A DNA stretch of 64,000 bases, taken from contig NZ_CP101137.1 of NCBI RefSeq assembly GCF_028473745.1, forward strand, positions 1,426,001 to 1,490,000, given 5' to 3'. The position numbers and the translations under genes are program-made. The notes below the pieces were generated by a model. The model ran no database searches. It had not been told where the DNA came from and worked only from the letters and a program-made list of their open reading frames with translations. This stretch comes from Streptomyces sp. M92 (GTDB taxonomy: Bacteria; Actinomycetota; Actinomycetes; Streptomycetales; Streptomycetaceae). This document shows, piece by piece, positions 28,218 through 36,289 of this stretch (position 1 is the first letter of the stretch; each line of letters opens with the position of its first letter).

Positions 28218-28234
28218 AAGTTGGCTGCCAACTT
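28218..28234. promoter_or_regulatory. Palindromic operator candidate upstream of the first GntR gene
   Basis: AAGTTGGCTGCCAACTT is a perfect 7-3-7 palindrome, 103 bases before the GTG start. The paralogous GntR gene has AAGTTGGCAACCAACTC at exactly the same distance. Both are followed 31 bases later by CCGCTTGG. These are probable binding sites of one or both regulators. Confidence 0.65.
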
Positions 28235-28308
28235 CTCTGTACTTATCTCCGCTTGGGCGCGTCTCATAACCACCTTCCACTGAACTGCCCAAAGATGGCG
28301 GGAAGTTG

Positions 28309-28314
28309 TAGTGT
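28309..28314 (+). promoter_or_regulatory. Leaderless -10 box of the first GntR gene
   Basis: TAGTGT lies 6 bases before GTG 28321, preceded by GAAGTTG. The second GntR gene has TAGCGT at the same place after the same GAAGTTG. No Shine-Dalgarno sequence is present in either case. Confidence 0.65.
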
Positions 28315-28320
28315 TCGGTC

Positions 28321-29226
28321 GTGGAGCCGGAACACGCCCTCGTCGACGACCGCAGGAGAGCGCAGCGGCCGCAGAGGACACATCGCGAGGTGGCCGACGA
28401 GCTGCGCGCCCGGATCAGGTCCGGTCGGCTGCGGGCGGGCCAGCGCATGCCCACCCAGGCCCAGTTGGCCGACGAGTTCGGCGTGGAGCGCGGCACCGTC
28501 CGCCAGGCCCTGCGCATCCTCCAGTCGGAGCGCCTGCTCACCAACGTGTCCAAGGGGAGCCCGGCGACCGTCGCACCCGACCCCGGCGCCGCCCTGACCG
28601 GCCCGGCCGCCCTGCCCGCGCCCACCACGGTCGCCCTCGCGCCCCGCATCGCCGAGGCCTTCGCGTCCCCGCACGTGGAGATCGACGCCCTGTGCCTGAC
28701 CTCGGTCTCCCTCGCCCTCGCCCTCGGTGAACCCCTGCGCCAGATCCACGCGGGGCGGCGGAAACCGGCCAAGATCGACGTACGTGTGCTGCTGCCGGGC
28801 CGGAACATCGACCTGGCCTTCCCGGTGGCGGTCGCCGGCCGCGGGGACGGCGACCCGGTGCACGAGCGGTGGCTGGCCATGCGCAACGCGCAGGGGCAGG
28901 TGCTCCAGCACAACCTGCTGAGCCTGCGGGCGACGCACGGCATCGACGTCAGCGTCACCTTCCGCGCGCTGCCCTTCACTCCGCCGGTGAAGCTGTACCT
29001 GCTCAACGGCGCGGAGGCCCTCTTCGCGTACTACACCCTCGGCCGGCGTGAGCGCGAGATCGATCACGAGCCGACGGAGATGTACGACGTGGAGGGCATC
29101 CGTTCGACGCTCTTCGCGTTCGCGCAGGCCGGGGGCGTGCGGGACGGGGTGTTCGTGAAGCAGTCGGGGCTGTGGTTCGACGCGCTGTGGGAGACGATCA
29201 GTTCGGAGCTGCTGCTCACGACGTGA
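28321..29226 (+). CDS. GntR-type regulator with unusual C-terminal domain (copy 1)
   Basis: The 301-residue protein has a winged helix (REVADELRARIRSGRLRAGQ, QLADEFGVERGTVRQALRIL) and a C-terminal domain unlike the common FadR or UTRA types. That domain holds VEIDALCLTSVSLALALGEP, KIDVRVLLPGRNIDLAFPVA, FRALPFTPPVKLYLLNG and LWFDALWETISSEL. The alternation of a strand, helix and RVLLP strand suggests a phospholipase-D-like fold without HKD catalytic motifs. The paralog at 29570 is about half identical by eye, and the membrane protein at 32525 shares the end of the domain. The start is leaderless GTG 28321. Ligand unknown. Confidence 0.85.
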   Translation: MEPEHALVDDRRRAQRPQRTHREVADELRARIRSGRLRAGQRMPTQAQLADEFGVERGTVRQALRILQSERLLTNVSKGSPATVAPDPGAALTGPAALPAPTTVALAPRIAEAFASPHVEIDALCLTSVSLALALGEPLRQIHAGRRKPAKIDVRVLLPGRNIDLAFPVAVAGRGDGDPVHERWLAMRNAQGQVLQHNLLSLRATHGIDVSVTFRALPFTPPVKLYLLNGAEALFAYYTLGRREREIDHEPTEMYDVEGIRSTLFAFAQAGGVRDGVFVKQSGLWFDALWETISSELLLTT

Positions 29227-29415
29227 TCAGAGCGCCGGGGCCGCGACCAGGAGGGCCAGCACCACCGCTCCGGCGGAGCTGACGGACGGGCTCTTGGCCT
29301 TGACGCCCACGGTGAGCAGGAGCAGGCCGACGATGCCGGCGGCGCCGTACTTCCACTGGACGAGCTGCTCGAGGGCGACGAAGAGGATCGCGGAGACTAA
29401 GGCGAGGACGGGCAC
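29227..29415 (-). CDS. Small two-TM protein between the GntR genes
   Basis: This 62-residue product starts at GTG 29415 (PVLALVSAILFVALEQLVQW) and ends in another hydrophobic run (AVVLALLVAAPAL), with GIVGLLLLTVGVKAK between. GAAGGGGGAAAG upstream gives a ribosome binding site. It is divergent from the second GntR gene, so its promoter may share the palindrome at 29467. Its stop abuts the first GntR stop. Function unknown. Confidence 0.65.
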   Translation of the reverse strand: MPVLALVSAILFVALEQLVQWKYGAAGIVGLLLLTVGVKAKSPSVSSAGAVVLALLVAAPAL

Positions 29416-29466
29416 TGTCTTTCCCCCTTCGGAGGTTCGGGAAGAAGAACTTCCGCCAACTGGCTA

Positions 29467-29483
29467 AAGTTGGCAACCAACTC
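29467..29483. promoter_or_regulatory. Operator candidate between small membrane gene and second GntR gene
   Basis: AAGTTGGCAACCAACTC has 6-bp arms (AGTTGG/CCAACT). GCCAACT at 29455 also pairs with AGTTGGC at 29468, giving overlapping half-sites. Position relative to the GTG start is identical to that at the first GntR gene. Confidence 0.65.
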
Positions 29484-29557
29484 CACTTAGGTTGTCCCCG
29501 CTTGGCTGCTACCTATAAACAAGTTCCAAACAACTCCCTATAGATAGCTCGAAGTTG

Positions 29558-29563
29558 TAGCGT
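29558..29563 (+). promoter_or_regulatory. Leaderless -10 box of the second GntR gene
   Basis: TAGCGT lies 6 bases before GTG 29570. Alignment with the promoter of the first GntR gene fixes both starts. Confidence 0.6.
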
Positions 29564-29569
29564 TTGGTC

Positions 29570-30439
29570 GTGACCCAGGAGAACGTGTCCGTGAACGGCG
29601 GCAGAAGGCTCTCGTCCCAGGAGATCGCCGACATACTGCGGGAGCGGATCCGCGAGGGAGACCTCAAGGCGGGCGACCGCCTGCCCACCCAGGCCGAACT
29701 GGCCGACGAGTTCGGGGTGGAGCGCGGCACCGTCCGTCAGGCCCTGCGCGCGCTCCAGGAGGACGGCCTGCTCACCAACGTGAGCAAGGGCAGCCCGCCC
29801 CGCATCGCCGAGCCCGCCACGCCCCGGGACGAGCCCCAGCCGACGATGGTGGCCCTCGGGCCCCGCCTGTCGGACGCGTTCTCGGTACCGCGCGTGAAGG
29901 TCGACGTCGTCTGCCACACCTCGGAGACGCTGATGCTCGCCCTCAGCGAGCCGCTCCGCCTCATCCACGAGGGCCGCATCCGCCCCCAGTCCATCGACTT
30001 CCGCGTCCTGATGCCGTCGCGGGACATCGAGCTGGCCTTCCCCGTCCTGGTGGACGAGGAGGACGACGACCCGGTCCACCAGCGCTGGCTCCAGATGCGC
30101 AACGCCCAGGCCCGCGTCCTCCAGCACAACCTGCACGCCGTGCGCTCCACCCACCACGTCGACGTGCGCATCGCCTTCCGCGCGCTGCCCTTCACCCCGC
30201 CGATGAAGCTCTACCTGCTCAACGGCGAGGAGGCCCTGTACGGCTACTACATGCTGACCCGGCGCGAGGAGGAGTACGAGAGCCGGACGCTGGAGATGTA
30301 CGACGCCCTGGGCTCCCAGTCGCTGCTGTTCTCCTTCCTGAAGCGGGCGGGCCACCGGGACGCGGTGTTCGTGGAGGAATCACAGAAGTGGTTCGACGCC
30401 CTCTGGGAAACCATCACCTCGGACATGACACTCTCCTAG
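29570..30439 (+). CDS. GntR-type regulator with unusual C-terminal domain (copy 2)
   Basis: This 289-residue paralog of the product of 28321 has the winged helix (SSQEIADILRERIREGDLKA, ELADEFGVERGTVRQALRAL) and the same C-terminal domain: VKVDVVCHTSETLMLALSEP, IDFRVLMPSRDIELAFPVLV, FRALPFTPPMKLYLLNG, KWFDALWETITSDM. GTG 29570 was chosen over TTG 29564 because it aligns with the leaderless start of copy 1. The HAD gene's start overlaps its stop by one base (TAGTG), so the two are one unit. Confidence 0.85.
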   Translation: MTQENVSVNGGRRLSSQEIADILRERIREGDLKAGDRLPTQAELADEFGVERGTVRQALRALQEDGLLTNVSKGSPPRIAEPATPRDEPQPTMVALGPRLSDAFSVPRVKVDVVCHTSETLMLALSEPLRLIHEGRIRPQSIDFRVLMPSRDIELAFPVLVDEEDDDPVHQRWLQMRNAQARVLQHNLHAVRSTHHVDVRIAFRALPFTPPMKLYLLNGEEALYGYYMLTRREEEYESRTLEMYDALGSQSLLFSFLKRAGHRDAVFVEESQKWFDALWETITSDMTLS

Positions 30440-31176
30440 TGACTTCTGATACGACGCGGACCGCAGCGGTGACGGACACGACTCGGCTCGGGCGGCTGAT
30501 GGGCGGCGCCCGTTTCGTGCTGTGGGACTTCGACGGGCCGATCTGCCGCCTGTTCGCCGGCCACACGGCGGAAGACGTCGCGGCGGACCTCGTCGACTGG
30601 CTCGGCAGCCGGGGACTGCACGGCCTGCTCACCGAGACGGAACGCGAGTCACCCGACCCCCACGCGGTGCTGCGCGCCGTCGACCGCCGCCACCCGCGCA
30701 GCGACCTGGTCGAGGAGCTGGAGGAACGCCTCACCCAGGAGGAGCTGCGGGCCACCGCCTCCGCGATGCCCACCGCGTACGCCGACCCGCTGATCCGCAC
30801 CTGGACGGGCATCGGGGTGCGGCTGGCCGTCGCCACCAACAACTCCCCGCGGGTCGTGCGCGCCTACCTGGCCGGCCGGGGCCTGCTGCCGTGCTTCGCC
30901 CCCCACATCTACGGCCGCACTCAGGAGCTGCGGCTGCTCAAACCGGACCCGCACACCCTCGTCCGGGCCCTCAGCGCGATGGGGGCCGAACCGTCGGCCT
31001 CGCTGTTCATCGGCGACTCCCCCTCCGACTGCGAGGCGGCCCGGCGTGCCGGGGTCCCCTTCCTCGGGTACGGGCGCGACGGCCGAAAGGCGCGGCTCCT
31101 CACCGAGGCCGGCGCCGACACGGTCGTCGACTCCTTCGCGCCGCTGCTGGAGCTACTGCGCGGTCCGGGCCGTTAG
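30439..31176 (+). CDS. HAD-superfamily hydrolase
   Basis: The 245-residue protein has HAD motif I (VLWDFDGPICRLFAG), motif II (VATNNSPRVVRAYL), motif III Lys (LKPDPHTLVRAL) and motif IV (SLFIGDSPSDCEAARRAG). The cap is a helical C1 type, as in phosphoglycolate phosphatase-like enzymes. It would dephosphorylate a small phosphate ester. Its GTG overlaps the stop of the GntR gene, implying co-expression. An APH-type kinase lies downstream, so opposing phosphorylation and dephosphorylation of one ligand is conceivable but unproven. Confidence 0.87.
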   Translation: MTSDTTRTAAVTDTTRLGRLMGGARFVLWDFDGPICRLFAGHTAEDVAADLVDWLGSRGLHGLLTETERESPDPHAVLRAVDRRHPRSDLVEELEERLTQEELRATASAMPTAYADPLIRTWTGIGVRLAVATNNSPRVVRAYLAGRGLLPCFAPHIYGRTQELRLLKPDPHTLVRALSAMGAEPSASLFIGDSPSDCEAARRAGVPFLGYGRDGRKARLLTEAGADTVVDSFAPLLELLRGPGR

Positions 31177-31273
31177 GGCCTGTCCGGCGGCTGGAGGGAC
31201 CCCGTCGGCTCCGCTCACCTGCACTGATCGGGTGCCGTCAGCTCCCTGTGACCTGATCTGCCGGACAGAGCCC
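31176..31273. mobile_element. MITE-like element with 13-bp terminal inverted repeats (candidate)
   Basis: GGGCCTGTCCGGC at the left end and GCCGGACAGAGCCC at the right end are inverted repeats differing by one extra base. The roughly 98-base interval has no reading frame and begins at the last base of the HAD stop codon. Similar ends occur on Streptomyces insertion sequences, from memory. No transposase and no target duplication were identified. Confidence 0.35.
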
Positions 31274-31351
31274 GGTCCGCGCCGGCCCGTGTCCCGGGGA
31301 GCTCTTGCCCACAGCTCCGTCACGCCGCCCTCCGAGACGGGCCGGGAGCGC

Positions 31352-31357
31352 TACTCT
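31352..31357 (+). promoter_or_regulatory. Leaderless -10 box of the APH-type kinase gene
   Basis: TACTCT lies 6 bases before ATG 31364 with no Shine-Dalgarno sequence. Confidence 0.6.
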
Positions 31358-31363
31358 CCGGCC

Positions 31364-32440
31364 ATGCACCGTCTGCACCACCGGGCGCGCAAGGCGCTCG
31401 TGCACCAGCTCGTGGAGTCGCGCAGACTCCGTGGCCGGGGTGAGGTACTGCGAGGGCACCACAACGTCAACTACGTCCGGCGCTCGGGTCTGGTGCTGGC
31501 GCTGCTGCTGGGCGCCGTACCGTTCACCCGGTTCAAGTACCGCGTTCCGCTGCGGACGGTGGAGGTCGTGCCGCGCATCTGGCCGAGGGAGGCGGAGGTG
31601 CTCGGCGTCGTCTGCCGGTACCTGCGGGAGGTCCCGCCCTGCCTCGCCGACCTCGGGGGCGGCTCCGTGCACCGGTACCGGCCGGGCCGGGCGCTCAGCG
31701 ACAGCGGGGCGGCCGCGGACGTGGGCGAGGAGATCATGCGTTCGTTCGCGTCCTTCTTCGTCCGCACCGCGCGCATCCCCGTGACGGAACTGCCGGCCCG
31801 CCCCGAGGACTGGCCGCCCGACGGCGACAGCCAGGGGTTCCTGGACTGGCTGGTCCGCTTCACGCGGGAGCGCGTGCACGCGCCGAACCGGGACCGGTTC
31901 GGCGCCCTGTTCGACGCCGTCGGCGTCCCGGACGACGCGATGGGGCGTTTCGCCGCCCACCACCGCTGCCGGGCCTCGCGTCCGTTCCGGCTCCTGCACA
32001 CGGACGTGCACCGGGCCAATGTCGTCGTACGGGGCAGCCGGCTCGCGGTGATCGACTGGGAGCTGGCCATATTCGGCGATCCTCTGCACGACCTCGCGAC
32101 CCACCTGGTGCGCATGGCGTACAGCAAGGAGGAGCAGGAGCGCATGACGCGGCTGTGGGCCGAGGCCATGACGGACGCCGGGCTCGCCGAGCTGACCGCG
32201 GGCCTGCACGAGGACCTTCCCGTCTACATCGCGTTCGAGTACGCCCAGTCGGTGTTCCCCGACATCATGCGGGCGGCCCTCGAGCTGCCCGAGGACGCGG
32301 ACACGGGCCGCTTCCACGCCGCCGCCGACCGGATCGAACGGGCGACGCGGCGGGCCCGTGAGCCGCTGCGGCTGGTCGACCTGCCGGGCCGGGACCGGGT
32401 CGTAGAAGCCCTGCGGGAGTGGCACGCCGCGCGGGAATGA
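31364..32440 (+). CDS. APH/choline-kinase-type phosphotransferase
   Basis: The 358-residue protein has the aminoglycoside-phosphotransferase kinase fold: Brenner motif LLHTDVHRANVVV with catalytic Asp and Asn, and LAVIDWELAIFGDPLHDLAT with the Mg-binding Asp. The N-terminal lobe is basic, starting MHRLHHRARKALVHQL, with HHNVNYVRRSG as probable glycine-poor nucleotide loop. The family phosphorylates small molecules such as antibiotics, choline, homoserine or methylthioribose. Substrate unknown. Its neighbours are a HAD hydrolase and a membrane protein sharing the GntR C-terminal domain. Confidence 0.85.
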   Translation: MHRLHHRARKALVHQLVESRRLRGRGEVLRGHHNVNYVRRSGLVLALLLGAVPFTRFKYRVPLRTVEVVPRIWPREAEVLGVVCRYLREVPPCLADLGGGSVHRYRPGRALSDSGAAADVGEEIMRSFASFFVRTARIPVTELPARPEDWPPDGDSQGFLDWLVRFTRERVHAPNRDRFGALFDAVGVPDDAMGRFAAHHRCRASRPFRLLHTDVHRANVVVRGSRLAVIDWELAIFGDPLHDLATHLVRMAYSKEEQERMTRLWAEAMTDAGLAELTAGLHEDLPVYIAFEYAQSVFPDIMRAALELPEDADTGRFHAAADRIERATRRAREPLRLVDLPGRDRVVEALREWHAARE

Positions 32441-32524
32441 GGCGCACCACCCTCTTCCGGACCGCCGCCGCGGCGGGCACCATGGGCCGGTCGGCTCCAA
32501 CCCGAGTGCCGGCGGGGGGACTTG

Positions 32525-33520
32525 GTGGCTGAGGGCAGACCGTCGCTGGGCGGCAGAGTGGCGGCGCGCTGGAGTCGTGCCGAGACGACGGTGACCAAAG
32601 GACTGCTCCTGGCGGTCTTCTGCGTCGGCCTCCTGGCCCAGTTCGTCAAGCCGGTGGGTGACGCCCTGCAGGGAAAGACCTACATCGGCGGAGCGCTGCT
32701 CAGCATCGTGGGCTATGTGCTCTACGCCGAGGTGCTGCGGCTGAACACGGCGCACGACGCGCAGCGGGAGGGGACGCGGCAGCTGCACGAGACCGTCCGG
32801 CGGCTGAGCGACGAGGTGCGGGAACTGACCGCGCGGCTGCGCCCGCAGTCGGGCGAGGAAGCCACCGCGGACCGGTTGCTCCAGGAGTGCGCGCAGGCGC
32901 TCCGGCGCGGCGGCGAGATCGAGCTGTGGGCCATGTGCTTCACCGGGGAGACCTTCGTCGAACCGCTGCGCAGAGTGCTGGAGGACCTGCCGCCCGACCC
33001 GTCGAGAAGCGTGTCGGTCCGCGTTCTGGTGCCGGACTTCACCCGCCCCATCGAGGTCCCCGGCCTGGTGCGGCTCGCGGACGGCAGGCTGGCGGACGCC
33101 CCGGGGTTCCGCCGGCATCTGGTGGAGACGATCACCGGGTACGAGCGGGGGTTGCGCACGATGCGCGGCAGGATGGCCCGCAAGGCCCAGGGCACACTGT
33201 CCGTCGAGTTCCGGACGGTGCACATGTCCCCCTTCCTCAAGCTGTACGTCGTCGGCGACGAGGTGGTGTACGAGGGGATCTACGACAAGCTCGACGTCAG
33301 GCCGGACGAGTACCGTGCGCCGGTGCCGCCGGACCCGGAGGCCGACGGGGACCAGCTGCTCGACCTCATCGGACACGGTTCGCTGCTGACCCGCTGGAGC
33401 CGGTACGACGGTGAGCTGGGGCGCGAGGTCGTCGCCCGCAGGCGCGCGTTCTTCGGAACCCTCTGGGACGCGGCGACCTCGCTGGAGGCACGGTCCGCGC
33501 GTGGCGGGAGCGGTGCGTAG
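32525..33520 (+). CDS. Two-TM protein sharing the C-terminal domain of the local GntR regulators
   Basis: The 331-residue protein has two TM segments (LLLAVFCVGLLAQFVKPVG and GALLSIVGYVLYAEVLRL), a coiled coil (LHETVRRLSDEVRELTARLR) and a cytoplasmic domain. That domain has EIELWAMCFTGETFVEPLRR, SVSVRVLVPDFTRPIEVPGL, VEFRTVHMSPFLKLYVVGD and AFFGTLWDAATSLEA. The order and spacing match the GntR C-terminal domains (strand, RVLLP strand, FRALPFTPPVKLYLLNG, WFDALWETI). No HKD motif is present. A membrane-bound version of the same sensor domain is the best interpretation. GTG 32525 follows GGGGGGA. Confidence 0.75.
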   Translation: MAEGRPSLGGRVAARWSRAETTVTKGLLLAVFCVGLLAQFVKPVGDALQGKTYIGGALLSIVGYVLYAEVLRLNTAHDAQREGTRQLHETVRRLSDEVRELTARLRPQSGEEATADRLLQECAQALRRGGEIELWAMCFTGETFVEPLRRVLEDLPPDPSRSVSVRVLVPDFTRPIEVPGLVRLADGRLADAPGFRRHLVETITGYERGLRTMRGRMARKAQGTLSVEFRTVHMSPFLKLYVVGDEVVYEGIYDKLDVRPDEYRAPVPPDPEADGDQLLDLIGHGSLLTRWSRYDGELGREVVARRRAFFGTLWDAATSLEARSARGGSGA

Positions 33521-33529
33521 GCTCGCCCC

Positions 33530-34135
33530 ATGAGTGAGCCCGGTCTGCGTGAGCGCAAGAAGCAGCGAATGTTCCAGGTGCTGTCGGACGTCGCGATCGA
33601 GCTCTTCGTGGAGAAGGGTTTCGACGCGGTGTCCGTGGCGGAGGTCGCCGCCGCGGCCGAGGTGTCCAAGCCGACGCTCTTCCGGTACTTCCCGGCCAAG
33701 GAGGACCTGGTCCTGCACCGCGTCGCCGACCACGAGGGCGAGGCGGCGCGGGTGGTGGCGCAGGGGCCCACGCCGCTGGCGGCGCTGCGCCGGCACTTCC
33801 TGGCGGGACTGGAGCGGTGCGACCCGGTGACCGGGCTCAACGACGATCCGGGCGTACTCGCCTTCCACACGCTGCTGTACGGGACGCCCGCACTAGTCGC
33901 CCGGCTGCACACCCACCTGGAGCGGTCGGAGGCGGCGCTGGGCCAGGCCCTGGGCGGGGACCTGGACGCCAGGCTCGCGGCCGGGCAGATCATCGCCGTA
34001 CAGCGGGTGCTCGCGCTGGAGAACTGGCGGCGGATCGCGGCCGGGGAGCGGGTGGCCGCGGTGCGCGGGGACGCGGTGGCGGCGGCGGAGCGGGCGTTCG
34101 GGGTGCTGGCGGCCGGGCTGCCGTGGATCGCCTGA
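33530..34135 (+). CDS. TetR-family regulator
   Basis: The 201-residue protein has a TetR helix-turn-helix (RKKQRMFQVLSDVAIELFVE, SVAEVAAAAEVSKPTLFRYF) and an Ala/Arg-rich ligand domain. The start is leaderless: TAGGCT lies 6 bases before ATG 33530, overlapping the stop of the two-TM gene. Its targets may be itself or the neighbouring helicase. Ligand unknown. Confidence 0.9.
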   Translation: MSEPGLRERKKQRMFQVLSDVAIELFVEKGFDAVSVAEVAAAAEVSKPTLFRYFPAKEDLVLHRVADHEGEAARVVAQGPTPLAALRRHFLAGLERCDPVTGLNDDPGVLAFHTLLYGTPALVARLHTHLERSEAALGQALGGDLDARLAAGQIIAVQRVLALENWRRIAAGERVAAVRGDAVAAAERAFGVLAAGLPWIA

Positions 34136-34149
34136 GCCGGACCGAGTCG

Positions 34150-34190
34150 GAATGAGTCGGGTTGAGTCGAGCCAGGTTGAGTTGCGGTAA
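34150..34190. repeat. Short GAGTCG/GAGTTG direct repeats before the helicase gene
   Basis: GAGTCG-like units recur roughly every 10-11 bases (GAATGAGTCGG, GTTGAGTCGA, GGTTGAGTTGCG), one DNA turn apart, followed by the AT-rich TAAATAATTTAACC, which is striking in this GC-rich DNA. It could be a regulatory site for the flanking TetR or helicase genes. Confidence 0.4.
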
Positions 34191-34231
34191 ATAATTTAAC
34201 CTAGTCTCGGAATTTGGGTACGCTCGACGGA

Positions 34232-36289
34232 ATGAGCTCACCCGACCCCGCCCTGCGGCACGCCCTCGCCCGCGAACGCGCCCACCACGACCACTGCCGC
34301 ACCGCCCTCGCCGCCATGGCCGACGGCGCCCGGGAACACGTCGTCACCGGCGAGGACGTCTCCGCCTCCGGTGCCGACGCCGAAGTGCTCGGGTACCGGT
34401 TGCGCAGCCGGGCGAAGGAACTGCGCGAACTGCCCGAGGGCCCGCTGTTCTTCGGGCGGCTGGACTTCGCCGGGACGGACCCGGCGGGCGATCACGCGGG
34501 GCAGACGTATCACCTGGGCCGGCTGCGGATCACCGAGGACCCCGCCGCCCCGCCCCTGGTCGTCGACTGGCGCGCCCCCGTCTCCCGCGCCTTCTACCAG
34601 GCCACCGCCGCCGACCCGCGCGGCGTCGCCGTCCGCCGGCGCTTCGGCTGGGCGCCAGGCAGCCGCGGGGATTGCGCCGACCTCACGGGACTGGAGGACG
34701 AACACCTCGGCCGGGGCGAGTCCCGCGCGAGCGACATCGTGGCCCGGGAGATCGAACGGCCCCGCGTCGGACCCATGCGGGACATCGCGGCCACCATCCA
34801 GCCCGAGCAGGACGACCTCGTCCGCGCCGGCCTCACCGCCACGGTCTGCGTCCAGGGCGCCCCGGGCACCGGGAAGACCGCCGTCGGCCTCCACCGGGCC
34901 GCCTACCTGCTCTACACCCACCCGCGGCGCATCGCCCGCGGCGGCCTGCTGATCCTCGGCCCCAACCCCACCTTCCTCGCCTACATCGCCGAGGTGCTGC
35001 CCGCCCTCGGCGAGACCGGCGTACGGCAGTCCACCCTCGCCCGGGAGATCGCCCGGCACCCGGTCACCGCCACCGACGACGAGCGGGCCGCCGCCGTGAA
35101 GCACGACGCCCGGACGGCCGAGGTGCTGCGCCGCGCCCTGTACGCCCGCGTGAGCCCCGACGCCGCCGGCTCCCTCGCCGTGCCGGACGGCTCGTACCGC
35201 TGGCGGGTCCCGGCCGGCGAGCTGATCCGGATCGTGGCGGACGTACGGGAGGAGGGGCCGCCGTACACCGTGGGCCGGGAACGCGTGCGGGCCCGGATCG
35301 TGCGGTACGTCCAGGAGCAGGCCGAGCGGCGGAGCGGGCCGCGGACGGCCGCCTGGACGCGCCGGATCGAACGCGCCCGGCCCGTCACCGCGTTCCTCGA
35401 CGCGGCCTGGCCCCGGGTGTGTCCCGAGGAGGTCGTCGCGGGGCTCCTCGGCGATCCGGGCGCGCTGGCGCGGGCCGCCGAGGGGCTGCTGGACGACGCG
35501 GAGCAGAAGGCGCTGCTGTGGACGGCGGCCGACGCGCGGCGGTCGTGGCGGTCGGCCCGCTGGACCGCCGCCGACCTGGTCCTCCTCGACGAGGTCGCCG
35601 GACTCCTCGAACACCCCGAGGGCTACGGGCACATCGTCGTCGACGAGGCCCAGGACCTGTCCCCGATGGAGTACCGGGCCATCGCCCGCCGGGCCGCCTT
35701 CGGCTCGCTCACCGTCCTCGGCGACCTGGCCCAGGGCACCACGCCGTGGGCCGCCCGGTCGTGGCGCACGGCCCTCGCCCACCTCGGTCGTCCGGACGCC
35801 CCGGTGACACCGCTGACCACCGGCTTCCGGGTGCCGCAGGCGGTCGTCGGCCTCACCAACCGGCTGCTGGCGCGGCTCGGCGTGGACGTGCCCGAGGCCC
35901 GCTCGCTGCGCGCGGACGGGGAGCTGTCGGTCCGCCCGGTCGCCGACGGCCGGGTCGTGGACGCGGCCGTCGACGCCGTACGGGCCGCCCTCACCCGGGA
36001 CGGCTCCGTCGGTGTCGTCGCCGCCGACGCGGACGTACCCGGGCTGCGCGACGCCCTCGACGCGGCCGGCATCCCGGCCGGGGGGCCGAAGGAGCTGGGC
36101 GCCCGGGTGACCGTGGCGCCGGCGGGCGTCGTCAAGGGGCTGGAGTACGACCACGTCGTGGCCGTCGAACCGGCGGCGATCGCGGAGGCGGAGGGCGCCG
36201 GCGGGCGGGGCCTGCACCGGCTGTACGTGGTGCTCACCCGCGCGGTGTCCCGGCTGGACGTGGTGCACGCGCGGCCGCTGCCCTTCTGA
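34232..36289 (+). CDS. HelD/UvrD-like superfamily 1 helicase
   Basis: The 685-residue protein has Walker A (VQGAPGTGKTAVGLHRAAYL), Walker B (HIVVDEAQDLSPMEYRAI), motif III (LTVLGDLAQGTTPWA), the Arg-finger motif (PLTTGFRVPQAVV) and motif V/VI (KGLEYDHVVAVEP, LYVVLTRAVSRLDVVHAR). A long coiled N-terminal arm (RHALARERAHHDHCRTALAA) and VVDWRAPVSRAFYQATA are typical of HelD proteins, which bind and recycle RNA polymerase. The start is leaderless, TACGCT 7 bases upstream. The rifamycin-associated element known upstream of the HelR subgroup was not seen. Confidence 0.88.
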   Translation: MSSPDPALRHALARERAHHDHCRTALAAMADGAREHVVTGEDVSASGADAEVLGYRLRSRAKELRELPEGPLFFGRLDFAGTDPAGDHAGQTYHLGRLRITEDPAAPPLVVDWRAPVSRAFYQATAADPRGVAVRRRFGWAPGSRGDCADLTGLEDEHLGRGESRASDIVAREIERPRVGPMRDIAATIQPEQDDLVRAGLTATVCVQGAPGTGKTAVGLHRAAYLLYTHPRRIARGGLLILGPNPTFLAYIAEVLPALGETGVRQSTLAREIARHPVTATDDERAAAVKHDARTAEVLRRALYARVSPDAAGSLAVPDGSYRWRVPAGELIRIVADVREEGPPYTVGRERVRARIVRYVQEQAERRSGPRTAAWTRRIERARPVTAFLDAAWPRVCPEEVVAGLLGDPGALARAAEGLLDDAEQKALLWTAADARRSWRSARWTAADLVLLDEVAGLLEHPEGYGHIVVDEAQDLSPMEYRAIARRAAFGSLTVLGDLAQGTTPWAARSWRTALAHLGRPDAPVTPLTTGFRVPQAVVGLTNRLLARLGVDVPEARSLRADGELSVRPVADGRVVDAAVDAVRAALTRDGSVGVVAADADVPGLRDALDAAGIPAGGPKELGARVTVAPAGVVKGLEYDHVVAVEPAAIAEAEGAGGRGLHRLYVVLTRAVSRLDVVHARPLPF

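What the first reader, a model, noticed from the sequence alone, without database searches (positions are those of the whole stretch)
28218..33520. Candidate signalling module: two GntR regulators, HAD hydrolase, APH-type kinase and a membrane protein sharing one sensor domain
Two GntR paralogs (28321, 29570) carry a C-terminal domain that is neither FadR-like nor UTRA. The two-TM protein at 32525 has the same ordered motifs in its cytoplasmic part: a VRVLVP/VRVLLP strand, an FR-x-PF-x-P-KLY block (FRALPFTPPVKLYLLNG versus FRTVHMSPFLKLYVVGD) and a terminal WFDALWETI/FFGTLWDAA block. Between them lie a HAD hydrolase coupled to GntR copy 2 and an APH-type kinase. A shared, possibly HKD-less phospholipase-D-like fold would sense one ligand at DNA and at membrane, while kinase and phosphatase change its phosphorylation. 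The function is inference; the domain sharing is seen in the sequence.
Basis: partly seen in the sequence, partly recalled or inferred. Interest (0 to 1): 0.75.

Follow-up and report, generated by a model that had tools for sequence, protein, structure and literature searches.

The report
One sensor domain, DNA and membrane
In this Streptomyces, two regulators whose counterparts are known to control sporulation (DevA and DevE) share their C-terminal domain with a neighbouring membrane protein; the domain is predicted to be a phospholipase-D-type fold, it lacks that fold's catalytic histidine, and it would likely let the cell read one small molecule both at its DNA and at its membrane.

The parts
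28218..28234 (.). operator AAGTTGGCTGCCAACTT, centre 95 bp upstream of the devE GTG
   Evidence: exact palindrome; one of only two exact AGTTGGNNNCCAACT in the 7.79-Mb genome; a site with at most one mismatch near devA/devE-like genes in 16 of 19 Streptomyces dev loci, alignment
28309..28314 (+). predicted -10 box TAGTGT of a leaderless devE promoter
   Evidence: same spacing to GTG as in devA; conserved block up to GTG; leaderless state inferred for devE
28321..29226 (+). devE-like GntR regulator (counterpart of DevE, SCO4188); sensor domain about 28609-29208
   Evidence: Pfam GntR 1.7e-18; homologues; paper PMC3187754
29227..29415 (-). devC: 62-aa hydrophobic protein, divergent from devA
   Evidence: read from the sequence; similar ORFs opposite the regulator at 20 of 27 operator-gene pairs
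29467..29483 (.). operator AAGTTGGCAACCAACTC between devC and devA, centre 95 bp upstream of the devA GTG
   Evidence: second exact copy in the genome
29494..29520 (-). predicted devC promoter: -35 GTTTAT (29515-29520), -10 GGGGAC (29494-29499)
   Evidence: 39 of 44 bases identical to SCO4189p, listed as SigF/H/N-dependent in PMC8346170
29558..29563 (+). devA -10 box TAGCGT, leaderless start at GTG 29570
   Evidence: the 23 bases ending in the GTG are identical to those tabulated for leaderless devA of S. coelicolor (PMC3160421)
29570..30439 (+). devA-like GntR regulator (counterpart of DevA, SCO4190); predicted PLD-fold sensor about 29843-30421
   Evidence: Pfam GntR 5.8e-19; model mean pLDDT 86.1; fold matches
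30439..31176 (+). devB: HAD-family hydrolase (putative phosphatase), overlapping the devA stop
   Evidence: Pfam Hydrolase 3.8e-16; DxD, K and GDxxxD motifs read in the sequence printed
31364..32440 (+). APH-family kinase
   Evidence: Pfam APH 9.7e-17; HTDVHRAN catalytic motif in the sequence printed
32525..33520 (+). membrane protein: TM hairpin about 32588-32737, predicted long helix about 32741-32848, predicted PLD-fold sensor about 32855-33472
   Evidence: hydropathy, model mean pLDDT 84.1, fold matches, profile match to the DevA family
33530..34135 (+). TetR regulator 9 bp after the membrane gene; by gene order the counterpart of SCO4194 (AcrTSc)
   Evidence: PMC8546615 passage; a relative in 38 of 62 loci of the membrane gene

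Best explanation
This locus corresponds to the devE-devC-devA-devB sporulation locus of S. coelicolor together with a kinase and a membrane gene, and it likely works as a closed metabolite-sensing switch in which a shared domain, predicted to be a PLD fold and lacking its catalytic histidine, would bind one small, probably phosphorylated, molecule in both regulators and in the membrane protein. Shown here: the shared domain; the degenerate HKD motif; two operators of one sequence that are the only exact copies in the genome; conserved synteny. Published for S. coelicolor: DevA represses devA-devB; devA and devE mutants fail at different steps of sporulation; devB mutants are conditionally bald. 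Predicted: the PLD fold. Inferred: (1) without ligand DevA and DevE sit on the same operator sequence and repress devC, devA-devB and devE; (2) ligand on the sensor releases them; (3) DevB, made in response, dephosphorylates the ligand, and the APH kinase regenerates it; (4) the membrane protein carries the same sensor on a helix that runs on from its TM hairpin and so couples the ligand to a membrane event, perhaps with DevC; (5) since no other exact operator exists, development is steered through DevB's substrate rather than through a large regulon; (6) DevE, which lacks the acidic residue of the sensor's first motif, has an altered or lost response.
Against: No ligand is known and none was tested. 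DevE's loss of E119 argues against one ligand for all three. [quoted passage not shown] The operator centre lies 95 bp upstream of the devA start, an unusual place for a repressor of devA, though it falls just behind the devC -10 box. Thirteen of 125 ER-helix genes have no site. APH starts 187 bp after devB, so a common transcript is not shown. 32 of 81 Streptomyces have no devA-like gene and only 11 of 81 have the membrane gene. Seven of 62 membrane genes have no dev gene nearby, so it can work without the rest. The membrane domains are a clade of their own on a long branch.
Confidence: 0.5

Rival explanations
1. Ordinary dev locus plus bystanders: the sensor domains share ancestry, but kinase and membrane protein have their own ligand and job, and stay linked only by descent of gene order.
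For: Membrane domains form one clade on a long branch apart from all GntR domains sampled (100/99); kinase and membrane gene not seen in 15 of 15 outgroup stretches; 7 of 62 membrane genes have no dev gene nearby.
Against: Linkage persists while the membrane proteins diverge to about 30 % identity, and E119, R204, K213, Y227, D245 and W279 stay common to most DevA-type and membrane rows.
Confidence: 0.3
2. The PLD-fold domain is a dimerisation or nucleic-acid-binding module, not a sensor, as in TrmBL2 or NucT-like proteins.
For: TrmBL2, NucT and SauUSI are among the best fold matches; single-motif PLD proteins are known to dimerise (recalled).
Against: The domain also sits on a membrane protein; the HKD lysine and other polar residues are kept in nearly all rows, more than dimer packing alone would need; TrmB, the best match of the membrane domain, is a sugar-binding domain by its PDB title.
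Confidence: 0.12
3. Kinase and phosphatase act on the regulators themselves rather than on a metabolite.
For: Physical linkage.
Against: APH and HAD families act mostly on small molecules (recalled); the best NCBIfam relatives are thiamine kinase and phosphoglycolate phosphatase, all far below cut-off.
Confidence: 0.06

Closest known systems
devE-devC-devA-devB locus of Streptomyces coelicolor (devE SCO4188, devA SCO4190)
   Same: same gene order; the two regulators are 60 % identical here and 57-58 % there; 23 identical bases at the leaderless devA start; devC promoter 39 of 44 bases identical to SCO4189p
   Different: in the papers seen I found no fold for the effector domain, no operator sequence and no link to the kinase or to SCO4193; devC-like ORFs are more widespread than stated there
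TrmB family of archaeal regulators
   Same: helix-turn-helix fused to a PLD-fold domain; TrmB's is a sugar-binding domain by PDB title
   Different: another HTH family, Pfam TrmB match below cut-off; no membrane-bound copy of the sensor that I know of (recalled)
Single-HKD PLD proteins (Nuc, NucT, Zucchini)
   Same: predicted fold and the register of the K-x4-N-x6-G part of the motif
   Different: catalytic histidine found in 0 of 298 rows; aspartate mostly asparagine
SCO4193 'putative ATP/GTP-binding membrane protein' (PMC4340878)
   Same: the membrane protein itself, by gene order and by the annotated name of its relatives
   Different: the P-loop-like GDALQGKT lies in the loop between the two TM helices and its pattern is kept in 11 of 51 aligned homologues, so the name is not supported

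Membership tests
GntR family, DevA subfamily | N-terminal GntR winged helix | tested here: met
   Pfam PF00392 66.4 and 68.0 bits, cut-off 27
GntR family, DevA subfamily | C-terminal domain neither FadR/FCD nor UTRA | tested here: met
   no such Pfam match listed at E up to 1 (DevE: 11 families, all listed; DevA: the best 25 of 26 listed)
GntR family, DevA subfamily | adjacent HAD gene devB and the documented leaderless devA start | tested here: met
Phospholipase D superfamily (fold) | PLD-type alpha/beta fold | tested here: met
Phospholipase D superfamily (active enzymes) | HxKx4D catalytic motif | tested here: not met
   H in 0 of 298 rows; K in 295 of 297
TrmB family | TrmB-type HTH | tested here: not met
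   PF01978 14.0 bits against cut-off 25.6 for DevA
TrmB family | ligand sensing by a PLD-fold domain | not testable with these tools
   needs binding assays; fold similarity only
HAD hydrolases | DxD nucleophile motif | tested here: met
   WDFDG in the window; 99 of 100 related frames
APH-type kinases | HxDxxxxN catalytic loop | tested here: met
   78 of 78 related frames
P-loop ATP/GTP-binding proteins (annotation of the membrane protein) | conserved Walker A | tested here: not met
   11 of 51 rows keep GDA[LI]xGK[ST], inside the TM hairpin; no P-loop family in Pfam

The most novel reading that the evidence does not exclude
Streptomyces reuses one dead phospholipase-D fold as a sensor at two addresses: on the DNA (DevA, DevE) and on the membrane (the SCO4193 family, with DevC), with a dedicated kinase and phosphatase writing and erasing the ligand. 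Sporulation would then be gated by one unknown phosphorylated metabolite through a loop whose only direct targets are its own genes, and the DevA/DevE split would come from DevE having lost the ligand-binding acidic residue.
Probability: 0.3. Interest if true: 0.78.

Novelty: new variant of a known kind. Interest (0 to 1): 0.6.

Why it matters
I found no report of the signal that the DevA subfamily reads. A predicted fold, a set of conserved pocket residues, an operator and a linked kinase/phosphatase pair turn that into a direct screen: which phosphorylated metabolite releases DevA from AGTTGGnnnCCAACT. The PLD fold would also give one of the seven GntR subfamilies (named in a passage of PMC6608401) a structural class, and the membrane copy suggests where the signal is used. 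The E119 loss offers a one-residue idea to test for why devA and devE mutants differ.

Tried and rejected

Papers. PMC3187754: abstract, parts 1-3 of 6 of the text, the Discussion and passages. PMC3160421, PMC8346170, PMC8546615, PMC4340878, PMC3224704, PMC6608401, PMC11323494: passages only. Hoskisson et al. 2006 is not held; that DevA binds its own promoter in gel shifts is recalled from it. 'Not in print' claims rest on the search listings, in a library that lacks most subscription journals.

Full report
What is there. The window is part of a 7.79-Mb Streptomyces genome (G000:C1:1426001-1490000; genus shown by the homologues). The five genes of the finding are present at the stated places. 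The second GntR gene ends in TAG at 30437-30439 and the HAD gene begins with GTG at 30439.

Identity. The pair of GntR genes, the coupled HAD gene and the small divergent ORF between them match the devE-devC-devA-devB locus described for S. coelicolor (devE SCO4188, devA SCO4190; PMC3187754). The 23 bases up to and including the GTG of GntR copy 2 are identical to those tabulated for leaderless devA (PMC3160421). The promoter of the divergent ORF agrees in 39 of 44 bases with SCO4189p, listed as SigF/H/N-dependent (PMC8346170). The membrane protein is by gene order and name SCO4193, 'putative ATP/GTP-binding membrane protein' (PMC4340878), and the TetR gene 9 bp behind it is by gene order SCO4194/AcrTSc (PMC8546615). 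These two assignments, and devB as SCO4191, rest on gene order; I did not compare the S. coelicolor records themselves.

Is the shared domain real? Yes. DevE's C-terminal part against that of the membrane protein: E 3e-4. The membrane domain against the own genome finds itself and DevA only; DevA's domain finds DevE and the membrane protein there. In 81 genomes of the genus the membrane domain matches at E up to 1e-3 in 34, mostly in DevA-like proteins. Profile against profile: probability 99.7 %, E 4.4e-26, 200 columns.

Shared residues and the DevE difference. Y227, D245, F275 and W279, with R204 and K213, are kept in nearly all rows of the regulators and of the membrane protein; T117 in 54 of 65, 121 of 121 and 114 of 114. 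E119 of the T-x-E-T motif is kept in 112 of 114 membrane rows and 50 of 65 regulator rows from the loci (which include DevE copies), but in 0 of 121 DevE rows (the window's DevE counted twice), where it is V, I or A; G225 is A in the same 121. On a tree of 101 sensor domains, with 29 of the membrane rows (30 drawn at random plus the window's, short ones dropped), the membrane domains are one clade (100/99), and the seven DevE rows and 12 locus copies form another (100/99); the tree warns of long branches between membrane and regulator domains.

Synteny. In a sample of 81 Streptomyces, 49 have a DevA/DevE-like match (best E at most 2.7e-63; in one, G369, only in pieces) and 32 have general GntR matches alone. 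Eleven have the membrane gene, one of them divergent, all among the 49, and in 10 of the 11 a copy lies within 3 kb of a devA-like gene; the eleventh, G320, has it on another contig, and G343 has a second, unlinked copy. A pattern search of the species-genome collection gave 62 loci of the membrane gene, all Streptomyces by title except one 'Actinobacteria bacterium OK074'; 55 have devA-like genes within 8 kb, all 55 devB and 52 the APH gene; two of the seven without are on pieces of about 10 kb. Some genomes occur in both samples. Outside the genus all 15 genomes with a match in a class sample of 394 (43 matched in all) were fetched: 15 of 15 have DevB next to the regulator, none shows the kinase or the membrane gene in the 3-12 kb held. 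Of 19 Streptomyces loci fetched with a devA-like gene (own included), 18 have devB and 17 an APH gene. In several clusters the kinase is a tandem APH-APH protein.

Operator and promoter. AGTTGGNNNCCAACT has exactly two copies in the genome, at 28219 and 29468 of the window, each centred 95 bp upstream of its GTG. A site with at most one mismatch is found near devA/devE-like genes in 16 of 19 Streptomyces dev loci and in 0 of 15 outgroup loci, mostly at the same distance from the start. It goes with the recognition helix: 112 of 125 ER-type helices have a site, 1 of 35 others; 47 rows could not be classified by my pattern, 9 of them with a site, and 2 were cut. The aligned promoters show a second conserved block that contains the divergent devC-type promoter (19 of 27 pairs fit my pattern for it) and a third that runs to the GTG. 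devC-like ORFs were found opposite the regulator at 20 of 27 operator-gene pairs, at both devA and devE genes (one gene counted twice, genes without an operator not examined). This is wider than PMC3187754 states; the window shows none opposite devE.

Mechanism. DevA autorepression, devAB co-transcription and the developmental phenotypes are published for S. coelicolor. What I add by inference: the operator just behind the devC -10 box should block devC; the two regulators should compete for the same sites; with no further exact site in the genome, the developmental effect should run through DevB. K213 at the phosphate-binding place of the PLD motif (recalled), a phosphatase-type gene in 18 of 19 Streptomyces and 15 of 15 outgroup loci, and a kinase in 17 of 19 Streptomyces loci make a phosphorylated metabolite my best guess for the ligand. 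The membrane protein has two hydrophobic stretches, and in the model the second helix runs on towards the sensor domain, so the sensor is predicted to be cytoplasmic.

Verdict. The locus is known; the shared PLD-fold sensor, the operator and the DevE change are the new points. Ligand, kinase/phosphatase roles and the membrane protein's output remain untested.

Noticed in passing
29227-29415 (-): devC, a 62-aa hydrophobic protein; devC-like ORFs lie opposite the regulator at 20 of 27 operator-gene pairs, also at devE genes, wider than the 2011 paper says. The window shows none opposite devE.
   Followed up: partly
33530-36289: A TetR gene (AcrTSc counterpart by gene order) and a large ATPase-like gene (HelD-like by recall) follow the membrane gene; relatives of the TetR in 38 of 62 loci and of the ATPase in 40 of 62.
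   Followed up: no
L135:8500-10803, L137:6249-8561, L133:5579-7843, L138:6198-8432, L140:6373-8769, L144:11740-13962: Tandem APH-APH kinases of 740-798 aa in dev clusters of other Streptomyces.
   Followed up: partly
L144:8535-9590: A divergent relative of the membrane protein (profile E 1e-24) on the opposite strand, next to a devA-like gene.
   Followed up: no
L180, L182, L191, L192, L194, L230, L232: Seven copies of the membrane gene without dev genes nearby.
   Followed up: partly
31177-31363: The devB-APH gap holds an inverted repeat around CCTGTCCGGC...GCCGGACAG, seen by eye; whether it is a terminator or a repeated element was not tested.
   Followed up: no
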